This document shows, one piece after another, positions 49,226 to 55,811 of a stretch of 64,000 nt of DNA (its first letter is position 1; the number at the start of each line of letters is the position of its first letter). The notes under the pieces were generated by a model. That model ran no database searches. It had not been told where the DNA came from and worked only from the letters and a program-made list of their open reading frames with translations. Position numbers and translations under genes: made by a program. The DNA is from Betaproteobacteria bacterium (GTDB lineage: Bacteria > Pseudomonadota > Gammaproteobacteria > Burkholderiales > Ferrovaceae): positions 1-64,000 of the forward strand of contig JAGXAW010000003.1 in NCBI GenBank assembly GCA_018971415.1, written 5' to 3'.

Positions 49226-51481
49226 ATGCAACTTATGTTATTAAAAAGATTGCTCATGCCATTAGGTGTTTTAATGGCGCTAGGCCTAACAGGTGCCGGA
49301 TTAGTGGTTCTTGCTATGGCGCTCATTTATCCCAGTCTTCCCTCCCTTGAAGCAATGACTGACTATCGTCCCAAGGTGCCGCTTCGGGTATTTACCGCTG
49401 ATAATCAGTTAATTGGTGAATTTGGAGAGGAAAAGCGCGTGGTGCTTAAATTGCGTTCTGTTCCCTTACGTATGCGTCAAGCAATTTTGGCGGCCGAGGA
49501 TGACCGCTTTTATCAGCATGGTGCAGTGGATTATCAAGGTGTTTTAAGAGCACTCTTTGCGGATATTTTTTCAGGTAGCGCAAAAGAAGGAGCAAGTACC
49601 ATTACTATGCAGGTTGCGCGTAATTTCTTTTTAAGTAATGAGCGAACAATTACCCGTAAAGTGTCTGAGATTTTGTTGGCCTACAAAATTGAGAGTAACT
49701 TATCGAAAGACCAAATTTTAGAGCTGTACATCAATCAGATTTATTTAGGTCAGCGCGCCTATGGTTTTGGTGCTGCCGCCTATGTGTACTATGGTAAGTC
49801 TCTTGATCAATTGTCCGTCTCGGAAATGGCTATGTTAGCGGGCCTGCCTAAGGCACCATCCAGATACAATCCAATGATTAACCCAAAGCGCGCTGCCTTA
49901 AGGCAGCAATATGTTTTACGTCGTATGCGTGAACTCAATTATATTAACGTGGCTGAGTACAACTACGCCATGGAGCACCCAGGTCATGTGGCCGATAGCC
50001 GTTCAGTGTATTCCGTTAAAGCAGATTACGTGGCGGAATTGGTTCGTCAGTACATGGTCAAAGCCTATGGGGAGAGAGTCTATGGCTTAGGTTATAAGGT
50101 CATTACGACCCTGTACAAGGCCAATCAAAATGCCGCCTTTGATGCCGTTCGTCGCGGAGTGCTGGCCTATGATCATCGACATGGTTACCGTGGTCCTGAG
50201 GACAGCGTGGAACTTCCAGATCACGCTATTACCGACGCTGATCTTGAGGACGCCATCTCCGACTACGACATCAGTAACGGACTTTATCCTGCTGTTGTTG
50301 TTGATGCTTCGACGCAAGAGGTTAGGGCGTATGTTAAGTCGCTCGGTATGATGGTGCTGCGCGGCGATCAGTTAACTTTTGCCAAGGCTGGTTTAGAGGC
50401 TAATGCCAAACATAGCTTACGTATACAACGCGGATCAGTAATTCGAGTTGAGCAGGAAGACAATGGGGTGTGGACGCTGTCACAGTACCCTAAGGTGGAG
50501 TCGGCGTTGGTATCCATTGATAGCCACACAGGAGCAATTCGCGCCTTAGTGGGCGGTTTTGATTTTGATAACAATAAATACAATCATGCCATTCAAGCCT
50601 ATCGCCAACCTGGCTCTAGTTTTAAACCCTTTATTTATTCAGCGGCCTTAGAGAAAGGGTATATGCCTTCTACGCTCATGGATGATTTACCGCTCACGAT
50701 TAACGATCCTAATATTAACGGCGGACAACCTTGGCAGCCGCATAATTATGAGAATGAGTATCTTGGTCCGATGCCACTACGTTTGGCTCTGGCTAAATCT
50801 AAAAACATGGTAGCTATTCGATTATTACAAGCCATCACGCCTTCCTATGCCCATCAGTACATCACGCGTTTTGGTTTTGAACCAGATAAGCATCCTCCTT
50901 ATTTGAGTATGGCGTTGGGTTCTGGTTTGGCAACCCCAGTTCAGATGGCCACGGCCTATGCTGTGTTTGCTAATGGCGGCTTTAGAGTTAAACCCTTTTA
51001 TATTGATCATATTGTCGATGCTCAAGGAAAGATCATCAGTCAAACCATTCCTCAAGTGGCGGGTGAGGGCGCTGAACAGGTGATCGATGAGCGTAATGCT
51101 TTTGTGATGCGCAGTATGCTCAAAGAAGTCATTCGTCAGGGGACGGGTGTGAAAGCTCAAGAGTTGGGCCGTAACGATTTAGCAGGAAAAACAGGGACAA
51201 CCAACGATTTGGTGGATGCATGGTTTACGGGTTTTCAGCCCTCATTGGTCGCAGTTGCTTGGGTTGGCTTTGATAAACCGGTGACGCTAGGCTCTGGTGA
51301 GACGGGAGCGCATGCGGCGCTACCCATTTGGATTGATTACATGAAAGTTGCCTTAAGTCATACTCCCGAGAGTCAAGAGAGTATGCCACCAGGTGTTGCC
51401 TATGTGTCCATTAACCCCGCTACCGGTAAACCTGATAGATCAGGATCAGTGATGGATTACGTGTATACAGATACAAGGTAG
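49226..51481 (+). CDS. mrcA: Penicillin-binding protein 1A (transglycosylase/transpeptidase)
   Basis: ILAAEDDRFYQHGAVDYQGVLRAL, GASTITMQVARNFFLS, RQPGSSFKPFIYSAAL, AGKTGTTNDLVDAWFTGF. Confidence 0.96.
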   Translation: MQLMLLKRLLMPLGVLMALGLTGAGLVVLAMALIYPSLPSLEAMTDYRPKVPLRVFTADNQLIGEFGEEKRVVLKLRSVPLRMRQAILAAEDDRFYQHGAVDYQGVLRALFADIFSGSAKEGASTITMQVARNFFLSNERTITRKVSEILLAYKIESNLSKDQILELYINQIYLGQRAYGFGAAAYVYYGKSLDQLSVSEMAMLAGLPKAPSRYNPMINPKRAALRQQYVLRRMRELNYINVAEYNYAMEHPGHVADSRSVYSVKADYVAELVRQYMVKAYGERVYGLGYKVITTLYKANQNAAFDAVRRGVLAYDHRHGYRGPEDSVELPDHAITDADLEDAISDYDISNGLYPAVVVDASTQEVRAYVKSLGMMVLRGDQLTFAKAGLEANAKHSLRIQRGSVIRVEQEDNGVWTLSQYPKVESALVSIDSHTGAIRALVGGFDFDNNKYNHAIQAYRQPGSSFKPFIYSAALEKGYMPSTLMDDLPLTINDPNINGGQPWQPHNYENEYLGPMPLRLALAKSKNMVAIRLLQAITPSYAHQYITRFGFEPDKHPPYLSMALGSGLATPVQMATAYAVFANGGFRVKPFYIDHIVDAQGKIISQTIPQVAGEGAEQVIDERNAFVMRSMLKEVIRQGTGVKAQELGRNDLAGKTGTTNDLVDAWFTGFQPSLVAVAWVGFDKPVTLGSGETGAHAALPIWIDYMKVALSHTPESQESMPPGVAYVSINPATGKPDRSGSVMDYVYTDTR

Positions 51482-51484
51482 ACA

Positions 51485-53082
<1,598 letters not shown>

Positions 53083-53135
53083 CTAATCGTTAAAAATGAC
53101 GGAACTTTATTCTTTAACTCCTACTCTACCACTAG

Positions 53136-53241
53136 GTTGGCTAATTACTGTTAATTACCAACGCCTGCTCTCTCCCTATGCAGGTGCCTTATTTAAAAGG
53201 CCTTCACCCCCTACCCTTCCCAATTGTAGGGGGTTTTTTTT
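53136..53241 (+). ncRNA. Candidate small RNA: four consecutive hairpins ending in an intrinsic terminator
   Basis: H1 GTTGG-c-TAATTA/ctgt/TAATTA-CCAAC (53136-53162); H2 CCTGC/GCAGG (53164-53184); H3 GCCTT/AAGGC (53186-53201); H4 CCCCCTAC/GTAGGGGG (53207-53233) followed by T8; no ORF assigned. Confidence 0.5.
53207..53241 (+). terminator. Rho-independent terminator on + strand
   Basis: 8 bp stem CCCCCTAC/GTAGGGGG plus T8 (53234-53241); U-tract only on the + side. Confidence 0.8.
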
Positions 53242-53863
53242 ATTCTTCTTCCGCTAACTCATTGATACTGTTCTCTTTTTTAAAGAAAGAGTGAAGTAAT
53301 TCGGTGACCTCATCAAAGCCCTGGCGGTTATGGCTTGAAAAAGGAATAACACTATAAGGTAGCTTGAGGTTCTTTAATTCTGCTTTAACTTCCTGCAATA
53401 CCTTGGTCTGCCCACCACGACCCAGTTTGTCGGCCTTAGTCAACAGGATTAACAGAGGTTTGCCTGTGGGTTCAAACCATTCTAGCAATTGGCGATCAAG
53501 GGGGGTTAGGGGATGGCGAATATCCATTAATACTACCAGTGCCCGAAGAGAGTCACGGTAGGTGAGGTACTGTGACAGAAGCTTCTGCCAATGCAGTTTC
53601 ACAGAGAGGGGCACTTCAGCGTAACCATATCCTGGTAAATCCACTAAAAAGCAGTCATCTCCCAGGGAAAAGTAGTTAATATGCTGCGTTCTACCAGGAG
53701 TTTTACTGGTAAAGGCTAACTTTCTTTGCTGTGTTAAGCAATTAATGGCACTGGATTTACCGGCGTTTGAGCGTCCGGCAAAAGCCACTTCCACAATATT
53801 GTCAGGGGGCAAGCCCTTCCACTCATTGACAGTAATAAAAAACTTAGCTTGGTGAAAATTCAC
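53240..53863 (-). CDS. engB: Ribosome biogenesis GTPase YihA/YsxC/EngB
   Basis: VAFAGRSNAGKSSAINCLTQQ, KTPGRTQHINYF, VDLPGYGYAEV, TKADK. Confidence 0.97.
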   Translation of the reverse strand: MNFHQAKFFITVNEWKGLPPDNIVEVAFAGRSNAGKSSAINCLTQQRKLAFTSKTPGRTQHINYFSLGDDCFLVDLPGYGYAEVPLSVKLHWQKLLSQYLTYRDSLRALVVLMDIRHPLTPLDRQLLEWFEPTGKPLLILLTKADKLGRGGQTKVLQEVKAELKNLKLPYSVIPFSSHNRQGFDEVTELLHSFFKKENSINELAEEE

Positions 53864-53875
53864 TTGGATTATCCT

Positions 53876-55162
53876 TTAGCTTGCCAGCTGACAAAATACT
53901 TTTTCCGCGGCTTCTAGCGTTTCATCAAGCTCCTGTGTGCCATGCACAGTGGAAACAAAGCCAGCTTCAAAGGCTGATGGGGCAAAATAAATCCCTTCGG
54001 TGAGCATGCCATGGAAAAAACGTTTGAAAAGCTCATTATCAGCACGCATGACCTCTGCAAGATTGCTCGGGCACTGCGCTTGAAAATGTAAACCAAACAT
54101 GCCTCCCACCGAGCAGGAGGAGAGGTTAAAGCCATAGCGCCCACCAATTTCCGTTATGCCGTCCATCACCGCCCGGGTTATGTCGCCCAAGCGTTCATAT
54201 AAGCCAGGCTCTCTCGCTAAGCGTAAATTCGCTAACCCTGCGGTCACAGCAACCGGGTTACCCGATAGGGTGCCTGCTTGATAAACGGGTCCCAGTGGAG
54301 CCAAATGCTCCATGATATCTCGTCGTCCACCAAAGGCGGCTAAGGGCATGCCACCACCGATGACTTTCCCTAGTGTAGTTAAATCAGGCTTAATGCCATA
54401 GATAGACTGCGCGCCACCCAGTGCCACTCTGAAGCCCGTCATCACCTCATCAAAGATTAAAACAGCACCATACTGTTGAGTAACTTCGCGGCAGGCCTGT
54501 AAGAAGGCGTGATGGGGAAGAACCATATTCATGTTGCCGGCAATGGGCTCCACGATGATCGCTGCAATCTCTTCGCCATAGCGCTGAAAACAGGCTTTTA
54601 ATGCCTCCACATCGTTGTAGGGTAAAACCAGTGTGTGAGATGCCAGATCAGCGGGAATACCTTTTGAGTCGGGTTGGCCCAAGGTCAAGGCTCCTGAGCC
54701 TGCCTTAACGAGGAGCGCATCACCATGGCCGTGATAGCATCCATCAAACTTTACAATGTTAGTGCGTCCCGTAAAGCCCCGGGCAAGACGAATAGCACTC
54801 ATGGTGGCTTCAGTGCCTGAGCTTGTGAGACGGAGCATCTCAAGGGAGGGCATAAGGGCAATAATTTCCTCTGCCAGTGTGATTTCAAGCTCCGTTGGTG
54901 CACCAAAACTCATCCCATCTTTGGCAATGGCGCACACTGCGTTAACAATCTCAGGGTTGGCATGGCCGTGTAATAGGGGTCCCCATGAACATACATAATC
55001 AATGTATTCTTGGCCTGCAGCATCCCAAAAGCGAGGACCTTTTCCTTTTTGAAAGAAACGGGGTGTTCCCCCTACACTGCGAAAGGCTCGAACAGGAGAA
55101 TTAACGCCACCAGGAATAACCTGTTGGGCACGATTAAATAATTCTTCATTGGTGGTGTTCAT
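53876..55162 (-). CDS. hemL: Glutamate-1-semialdehyde 2,1-aminomutase (start at internal ATG 55162)
   Basis: [65 protein letters not shown]. Confidence 0.97.
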
Positions 55163-55811
55163 GGTGCATCCTTGATTCAATAATAAGTTGTTGGAATTGT
55201 TGTACTGTTTCATTAAGAGTTTCTAAATTCGCTAAGGCACCAACCACAGCAATGGCGTCAGCTCCTGCATGGATGACAGCTTTAGCATTGTTCACAGTGA
55301 TGCCACCAATGGCTACTTTGGTGATTGATCTGAGTGTCCTGTCTTGATCAAATAAATGAAGAGGGGCTATGGCGGCATGAGCTTTGGTGCTGGATGGAAA
55401 AACACTGCCAAAGGCCACATAATCAGCCCCCAGTTCTTGGGCTTTCATTGCAAGATCAAGATCTTGATAACAGGAGGCACCCACCATCAATGTGTGGGTG
55501 GAATAGCGAGTGTTAAGCTCGTTTAAGGATAAATCTTGCGTACCCAAGTGAACTCCATAAGCATTTATTTCCAGTGCCAGCTCCACATCATCGTTAACAA
55601 TAAGGTGGGCACCTCTCTCAGAGAGGTATGACTGCAGTGCACGCGCTTCTTGTTGTTTCATGGCGTTAGACAATTGTTTTCTGCGATATTGAAACCACTT
55701 AACACTATGGCGTGTTAAGGCTTCAGCCCACAGCATAAGCTCGGTAAAGGAGAAGGATTCAGGGGTTATGGCGTAAAGACCGCTTGGCGTGTCGCGTTTA
55801 ATGTGTGTCAC
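55146..55811 (-). CDS. thiE: Thiamine-phosphate synthase
   Basis: [57 protein letters not shown]. Confidence 0.93.

What the first reader, a model, noticed from the sequence alone, without database searches (positions are those of the whole stretch)
53136..53241. Four-hairpin candidate sRNA with C/U-rich loops in the hemB-engB spacer
The 169-bp spacer between two minus-strand genes contains four consecutive hairpins on the + strand: an 11-bp stem with a 1-nt bulge (53136-53162), CCTGC/GCAGG with loop UCUCUCCCUAU, GCCTT/AAGGC, and CCCCCTAC/GTAGGGGG with loop CCUUCCCAAUU followed by T8. The U-tract makes the terminator + strand specific, yet there is no + strand gene for it to serve except the converging ORF ending at 52099, about 1.1 kb away. 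The C/U-rich loops resemble anti-Shine-Dalgarno loops of known trans-acting or toxic sRNAs. I recall an Rfam family named 'Betaproteobacteria toxic small RNA', but I cannot test membership here. I found no convincing promoter by eye.
Basis: partly seen in the sequence, partly recalled or inferred. Interest (0 to 1): 0.62.

Follow-up and report, generated by a model that had tools for sequence, protein, structure and literature searches.

The report
Envelope-stress-type small RNA beside hemB
The spacer between hemB and engB encodes a conserved four-hairpin regulatory small RNA, the local version of the little-studied 'anti-hemB' RNA; it carries the signature promoter of the cell-envelope stress sigma factor and sits in the same place, relative to engB, as the well-studied ErsA and Spot 42 RNAs, which suggests all three may be versions of one old gene.

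Summary
In detail: four + strand hairpins, C/U-rich loops and a T8 terminator (z -5.2). The element is the local orthologue of anti-hemB (Rfam RF02837: 46.0 bits, E 1e-8, just under the 49.5 cut-off; two same-genus orthologues pass it). It is not the 'Betaproteobacteria toxic sRNA' (21.6 of 50 bits). All four hairpins covary across betaproteobacteria (20 of 22 pairs with two-sided changes), and 83 G-U versus 11 A-C cells show that the + strand folds. The motif reaches 9/11 or better in 55 of 71 homologous loci (1.6 expected), almost only at spacings 16-17. Outside Burkholderiales the same kind of RNA occupies the polA-engB spacer, converging on the engB 3' end: the position of ErsA (sigma22-dependent) and of Spot 42. 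Best explanation: a sigmaE-controlled, Hfq-dependent trans-acting sRNA that masks ribosome-binding sites with CUCCCU loops, a betaproteobacterial counterpart of ErsA. Expression, sigmaE dependence and targets in this organism are untested. Common descent with ErsA/Spot 42 rests on position, promoter and intermediates, not on significant sequence similarity.

The parts
53101..53107 (+). sigmaE(RpoE)-type -35 element GGAACTT
   Evidence: Contains GAACTT exactly; conserved at the same place in homologues; motif pair in 55/71 loci vs 1.6 expected from shuffles; permuted motifs mean 0.67, at most 9 loci
53125..53129 (+). sigmaE-type -10 element TCTAC (17-nt spacer 53108-53124)
   Evidence: TCTGA in most of the family, TCTAC/TCTAT in this genus; spacing peak at 16-17
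53134..53136 (+). predicted transcription start
   Evidence: Inference: 5-7 nt after the -10; agrees with the 105-nt length of B. cenocepacia ncS04, the same locus (PMC5688073)
53136..53162 (+). hairpin 1, 11 bp with one bulge; absent from the Rfam anti-hemB model
   Evidence: 6 of 6 modelled pairs covary in A3, 90% of cells paired; 4 pairs also in the unfitted MAFFT/RNAalifold alignment
53163..53185 (+). hairpin 2 with the conserved CUCCCU anti-SD-like loop
   Evidence: 99% of cells paired, 4 of 5 pairs covary
53186..53201 (+). hairpin 3 (GCCUU/AAGGC)
   Evidence: 5 of 5 pairs covary, 80% paired
53206..53241 (+). hairpin 4 with second C/U-rich loop plus U-tract: intrinsic terminator
   Evidence: 5 of 6 pairs covary, 96% paired
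53161..53241 (+). match to Rfam RF02837 anti-hemB, model 1-81
   Evidence: 46.0 bits, E 1.1e-8, gathering 49.5
52069..53070 (-). hemB, divergent neighbour
   Evidence: ORF; homologues 62-73% identical outside the genus
53240..53863 (-). engB (yihA/ysxC GTPase), convergent neighbour; its stop codon overlaps the U-tract end
   Evidence: ORF; homologues next to the sRNA in beta- and gammaproteobacteria

Best explanation
53134-53241 (+) is a gene for a ~107-nt trans-acting small RNA, the local orthologue of the betaproteobacterial anti-hemB RNA. RNA polymerase with the envelope-stress factor sigmaE (RpoE) transcribes it from GGAACTT-N17-TCTAC at 53101-53129, and it stops at its own terminator, which overlaps the engB stop codon. 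The RNA would bind Hfq through its U-tail and pair through the C/U-rich loops of hairpins 2 and 4 (core CUCCCU) with G/A-rich ribosome-binding sites, repressing several mRNAs when the envelope is stressed. It works like Pseudomonas ErsA and is probably the same ancestral, engB-linked gene. Shown here: structure, covariation, strand, promoter motif conservation, gene position, presence of rpoE and hfq. Inferred: transcription in this organism, sigmaE dependence, Hfq binding, targets, common descent with ErsA/Spot 42.
For: Rfam anti-hemB hit, full length; same-genus orthologues G002/G003 at 49.6 bits, above the cut-off; same engB-hemB position, convergent to engB, in dozens of betaproteobacteria. 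Covariation 20/22 pairs, 91.4% of cells paired vs at most 53% in slid controls; unfitted RNAalifold support, 9 of 10 pairs. GU:AC 83:11. sigmaE motif 55/71 vs 1.6 expected; permuted motifs mean 0.67; spacing peak 16-17. rpoE (315.7 bits) and hfq present; rpoE itself preceded by TGAACTT-N16-TCAAA. B. cenocepacia anti-hemB = ncS04: 105 nt, dRNA-seq, RACE and Northern, reported to bind Hfq (PMC5688073). Gamma homologues with the same promoter in polA-engB, two of them above the anti-hemB cut-off. ErsA at that locus is sigma22-dependent and needs Hfq to repress oprD (PMC8395346, PMC8575079, PMC7264166).
Against: The window -10 (TCTAC) differs from TCTGA at two positions. Burkholderia sensu stricto (L021, L026) has lost the -35, and B. 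cenocepacia ncS04 did not change in seven conditions including osmotic stress and low pH, so sigmaE control is not universal. Same-genus rpoE genes in G001/G002 lack a clear sigmaE site. No transcript data exist for this organism. Start sites complementary to the loop are only modestly enriched in the genus and not in the window's own genome.
Confidence: 0.78

Rival explanations
1. Cis-acting element: the RNA mainly acts as an antisense or terminator element on the engB-hemB read-through transcript (as the name anti-hemB suggests), limiting hemB expression.
For: It is fully antisense to the engB-hemB intergenic transcript, and its terminator overlaps the engB stop codon.
Against: In gammaproteobacteria the same kind of RNA lies between polA and engB with no hemB nearby, so hemB cannot be the conserved target; loops are conserved as C/U-rich anti-SD motifs; ncS04 is reported to bind Hfq.
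Confidence: 0.08
2. A housekeeping (sigma70) sRNA of the double-hairpin 'toxic sRNA' type that controls carbon metabolism, with the GGAACTT-TCT motif coincidental.
For: Weak RF02278 similarity (21.6 bits); Burkholderia sensu stricto seems to lack the sigmaE -35; conserved candidate targets are metabolic genes such as transketolase.
Against: Motif conservation far above shuffles and permuted motifs; no sigma70-like promoter in the window and none at 9/11 or better in the homologues.
Confidence: 0.1
3. The hairpins belong to the minus-strand transcript (hemB leader or engB 3' end) and the + strand terminator is incidental.
For: The minus strand also folds (z -3.2).
Against: U-tract on the + strand; 83 G-U versus 11 A-C cells favour + strand pairing; promoter conserved on the + strand; transcript demonstrated for the orthologue in B. 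cenocepacia.
Confidence: 0.03

Closest known systems
anti-hemB RNA, Rfam RF02837 (B. cenocepacia ncS04)
   Same: Same locus between engB and hemB, same orientation, hairpins 2-4, C/U-rich loops, terminator; end-to-end match at E 1.1e-8; ncS04 length 105 nt against ~107 predicted here
   Different: Window copy scores 46.0, under the 49.5 cut-off; the Rfam model omits hairpin 1; Burkholderia itself lacks the sigmaE -35 that most relatives have
ErsA / Pseudomon-1, Rfam RF01719 (Pseudomonas)
   Same: Converges on the engB 3' end; sigmaE-type (sigma22/AlgU) promoter, GAACTA-N17-TCAGA in four of five Pseudomonas loci examined; C/U-rich stretches; Hfq-dependent (PMC7264166)
   Different: Upstream gene is polA, not hemB; different secondary structure; similarity to the R2 model not significant genome-wide (E ~1-6)
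Spot 42 (spf), Rfam RF00021
   Same: Converges on the engB/yihA 3' end; best R2 hit in both the E. coli and Photorhabdus loci is exactly spf
   Different: No convincing sigmaE promoter found (best 8/11, without TC at the -10); controlled by CRP (own knowledge); encodes the small protein SpfP; weak similarity (12.6-17.4 bits)
Betaproteobacteria toxic sRNA RF02278, mmgR/suhB RF00519, Neisseria NmsR sibling sRNAs, alphaproteobacterial cuckoo RNAs
   Same: Small hairpin RNAs with CCUCC/CUCCCU-type anti-SD loops
   Different: Two-hairpin layout or other loci; window scores well under the cut-offs of the first two (21.6/50 and 26.3/41); the others were not tested

Membership tests
anti-hemB RF02837 | Rfam gathering score 49.5 bits | tested here: not met
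   46.0 bits; same-locus orthologues in G002 and G003 reach 49.6. Therefore called an orthologue of anti-hemB, not a formal Rfam member
anti-hemB RF02837 | Full-length match to the consensus structure | tested here: met
   Model positions 1-81 of 81
anti-hemB RF02837 | Location in the engB-hemB spacer, opposite strand | tested here: met
anti-hemB RF02837 | Expressed Hfq-binding transcript | not testable with these tools
   Reported for ncS04 of B. cenocepacia (PMC5688073); hfq gene present in G000
Betaproteobacteria toxic sRNA RF02278 | Gathering score 50 bits | tested here: not met
   21.6 bits, E 0.44
Betaproteobacteria toxic sRNA RF02278 | Growth inhibition on overexpression | not testable with these tools
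   Needs expression in a laboratory strain
sigmaE (RpoE/ECF02) regulon | GAACTT - 16/17 nt - TCTGA-like promoter at the start site | tested here: met
   GGAACTT-N17-TCTAC, 9 of 11; 55/71 homologues at 9/11 or better vs 1.6 expected
sigmaE (RpoE/ECF02) regulon | RpoE-dependent transcription | not testable with these tools
   rpoE present, followed by an rseA-like gene
ErsA/Pseudomon-1 RF01719 | Rfam match | tested here: not met
   No RF01719 hit in the window region even at E up to 5; reached only in Pseudomonas loci
ErsA/Pseudomon-1 RF01719 | Convergent to engB with a sigmaE-type promoter | tested here: met
Spot 42 RF00021 | Rfam match | tested here: not met
   No hit in the window region at E up to 5

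The most novel reading that the evidence does not exclude
anti-hemB is the sRNA arm of the sigmaE envelope-stress response in betaproteobacteria, and anti-hemB, ErsA and Spot 42 are descendants of one engB-linked sRNA gene that kept its place while its promoter (sigmaE kept in most, lost in Burkholderia sensu stricto and enterics) and its upstream neighbour (polA or hemB) changed.
Probability: 0.55. Interest if true: 0.72.

Novelty: new variant of a known kind. Interest (0 to 1): 0.6.

Why it matters
anti-hemB is an Hfq-bound RNA found across betaproteobacteria with no known role or trigger. A conserved sigmaE-type promoter gives it an immediate, testable function (post-transcriptional arm of the envelope stress response) in a group for which the papers searched here describe no such sRNA. 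The shared engB position links three separately named RNA families (anti-hemB, ErsA, Spot 42) into one possible lineage, which would let targets and mechanisms be carried over from ErsA. It also shows that the Rfam model lacks the first hairpin.

Tried and rejected
Toxic sRNA RF02278: rejected by score. sigma70 promoter: none. Minus-strand element: disfavoured by U-tract and GU/AC asymmetry. Other copies in the own genome: weak RF02837 hits (22.8 bits or less) were not confirmed as this family when rescanned against all of Rfam. Target search by AGGGAGA-N3-12-ATG: 26 matches vs 24 reversed controls in G000 and 34-39 vs 21-29 in the other three species; some start sites are conserved in the genus (NrfD-type membrane protein, transketolase; cytochrome b in three of four), but complementarity to a G/A-rich SD is weak evidence and I do not claim targets. 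Genome-wide R2 search in named Pseudomonas genomes gave no significant hit at ErsA; only the coincidence with RF01719 positions is informative. A class-wide promoter+loop pattern gave many chance matches (111 genomes vs 84 for a scrambled pattern), so only hits confirmed by the covariance model and by neighbouring genes were used.

Full report
Observation. The + strand ends in T8; the minus strand folds less exceptionally (z -3.2). hemB (52069-53070) and engB (53240-53863) lie on the minus strand; the RNA would diverge from hemB and converge on engB, the U-tract overlapping the engB stop codon.

Identity. cmscan of 51000-55500 gives one clear match, RF02837 anti-hemB, positions 1-81 of 81, 46.0 bits, E 1.1e-8, against a gathering score of 49.5. 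With the gathering threshold the window has no Rfam hit at all. Of the same-genus genomes, G002 and G003 reach 49.6 and G001 45.4; relatives in the order reach up to 80 bits. I therefore call it the orthologue of anti-hemB at the conserved locus, noting that it narrowly fails Rfam's own rule. The known copy is ncS04 of Burkholderia cenocepacia: 105 nt, mapped by dRNA-seq and 3'RACE, seen on Northerns and reported to bind Hfq (PMC5688073).

Structure and strand. I aligned 49 RNAs from engB-hemB spacers (A1). RNAalifold on the MAFFT alignment, which is not fitted to any structure, recovers hairpins 1 and 2 with two-sided changes in 9 of 10 pairs. A covariance model with all four hairpins (R2) finds 71 matches at 54-105 bits. 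On that alignment, which is fitted to the model and so leans towards it, 91.4% of cells pair, against 37-53% when partners are slid by 1-3 columns, and 20 of 22 pairs show two-sided changes, hairpin 1 included. Hairpin 1 is not in the Rfam model. G-U cells outnumber A-C cells 83 to 11, so the + strand is the strand under selection.

Promoter. No sigma70-like site exists. Upstream of hairpin 1, however, is GGAACTT (53101-53107), 17 nt, TCTAC (53125-53129). In the family and across betaproteobacteria the same place reads GGAACTT-N16/17-TCTGA or close to it. Scored as GAACTT+TCTGA, 55 of 71 loci reach 9 of 11 against 1.6 expected from dinucleotide shuffles, and 35 reach 10 or more against 0.1. 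Three hundred permuted motifs score a mean of 0.67 loci, the best 9, and the sigmaE motif peaks sharply at spacings 16 and 17. This is the classical RpoE/ECF02 promoter form (established knowledge). The loci are related, so these counts are not independent events. The model starts just after the -10 because I cut the training sequences there, so positional constancy is partly built in for those; L009, L094, L105 and L109 were not in the training set and still have the -10 at 1 nt. The 105-nt length of ncS04 puts the Burkholderia start at the same position (the B. ambifaria hit is 109 nt), although Burkholderia sensu stricto (L021, L026) has lost the -35; this would fit the lack of stress induction of ncS04. 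G000 has rpoE (315.7 bits) with TGAACTT-N16-TCAAA upstream and an rseA-like gene downstream, and hfq.

Relation to ErsA and Spot 42. A class-wide pattern search was noisy (scrambled control), but R2 separates the real hits: 15 non-Burkholderiales loci score 18.8-52 bits while the chance matches score nothing. Their neighbours are engB, always convergent, in ten, and polA on the upstream side in nine, in L169 with another gene between. Two of them (L145, L147) exceed the anti-hemB gathering score and both lie beside polA. This polA > sRNA > < engB arrangement is that of ErsA (polA-engB intergenic region, PMC8575079) and of E. coli spf (polA > spf > < yihA). In five named Pseudomonas genomes the engB-flanking RNA is RF01719 Pseudomon-1/ErsA and in Photorhabdus it is Spot 42. 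R2's only hits in these loci fall on ErsA (5 of 5) and Spot 42 (2 of 2), though at 12.6-17.4 bits, which is not significant genome-wide and could partly reflect a shared terminator type. Four of the Pseudomonas loci carry GAACTA-N17-TCAGA, and ErsA is known to be sigma22(AlgU)-dependent and to repress oprD with Hfq (PMC8395346, PMC7264166). Position, promoter and above-cut-off intermediates make common origin likely; sequence alone does not prove it.

Mechanism. Most likely: sigmaE-driven transcription, Hfq binding via the U-tail, pairing of the CUCCCU loop of hairpin 2 and the C/U loop of hairpin 4 with G/A-rich ribosome-binding sites, and repression of several mRNAs. Structure, strand and promoter are shown by comparison; transcription, Hfq binding and targets here are inferred. 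A cis role on hemB is unlikely because gamma copies are not next to hemB. Start sites with AGGGAGAG conserved in the genus (NrfD-type membrane protein, transketolase, cytochrome b in three species) are only leads, since enrichment over controls is modest.

Novelty. In the library searched, anti-hemB RNA appears in very few papers and none links it to RpoE or ErsA. The RNA is a known kind; the sigmaE-type promoter, the extra 5' hairpin as part of the conserved structure, and the ErsA/Spot 42 positional link appear not to have been described there, with the caveat that most subscription papers are not held.

Noticed in passing
L013 2697-2804 and 2821-2933 (Nitrosospira briensis): Tandem duplicate of the sRNA; only the copy at 2821-2933 has the sigmaE-type promoter.
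   Followed up: partly
G231:C33:13446-13935 (non-Burkholderiales gammaproteobacterium): Three tandem matches of the GAACT/GGTCTGACC promoter pattern each followed by CCGCTTTTCTCCCT: possible tandem array of the same sRNA type.
   Followed up: no
L021, L026 (Burkholderia) and L025, L028, L045, L047 (Paraburkholderia): The -35 decays from GAACTT to AAACTT (Paraburkholderia) and is unrecognisable in Burkholderia, where TATGAT appears instead: possible promoter switch from sigmaE to a housekeeping sigma.
   Followed up: partly
L204, L209, L212-L217 (G000-G003): Start sites AGGGAGAG(AG)N-ATG of an NrfD-type membrane protein and of transketolase are conserved in all four species of the genus and complementary to the hairpin-2 loop.
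   Followed up: partly
L160 1546-1653: The polA-engB sRNA of this gammaproteobacterium also matches alphaproteobacterial RF02344 ar14 below its cut-off (38.6 of 58.8 bits, E 7e-4), hinting at links to alphaproteobacterial CU-rich sRNAs.
   Followed up: no
L002 1514-1574 (G000:C7): Sub-threshold match to the leucine operon leader RF00512 (34.8 of 50 bits).
   Followed up: no
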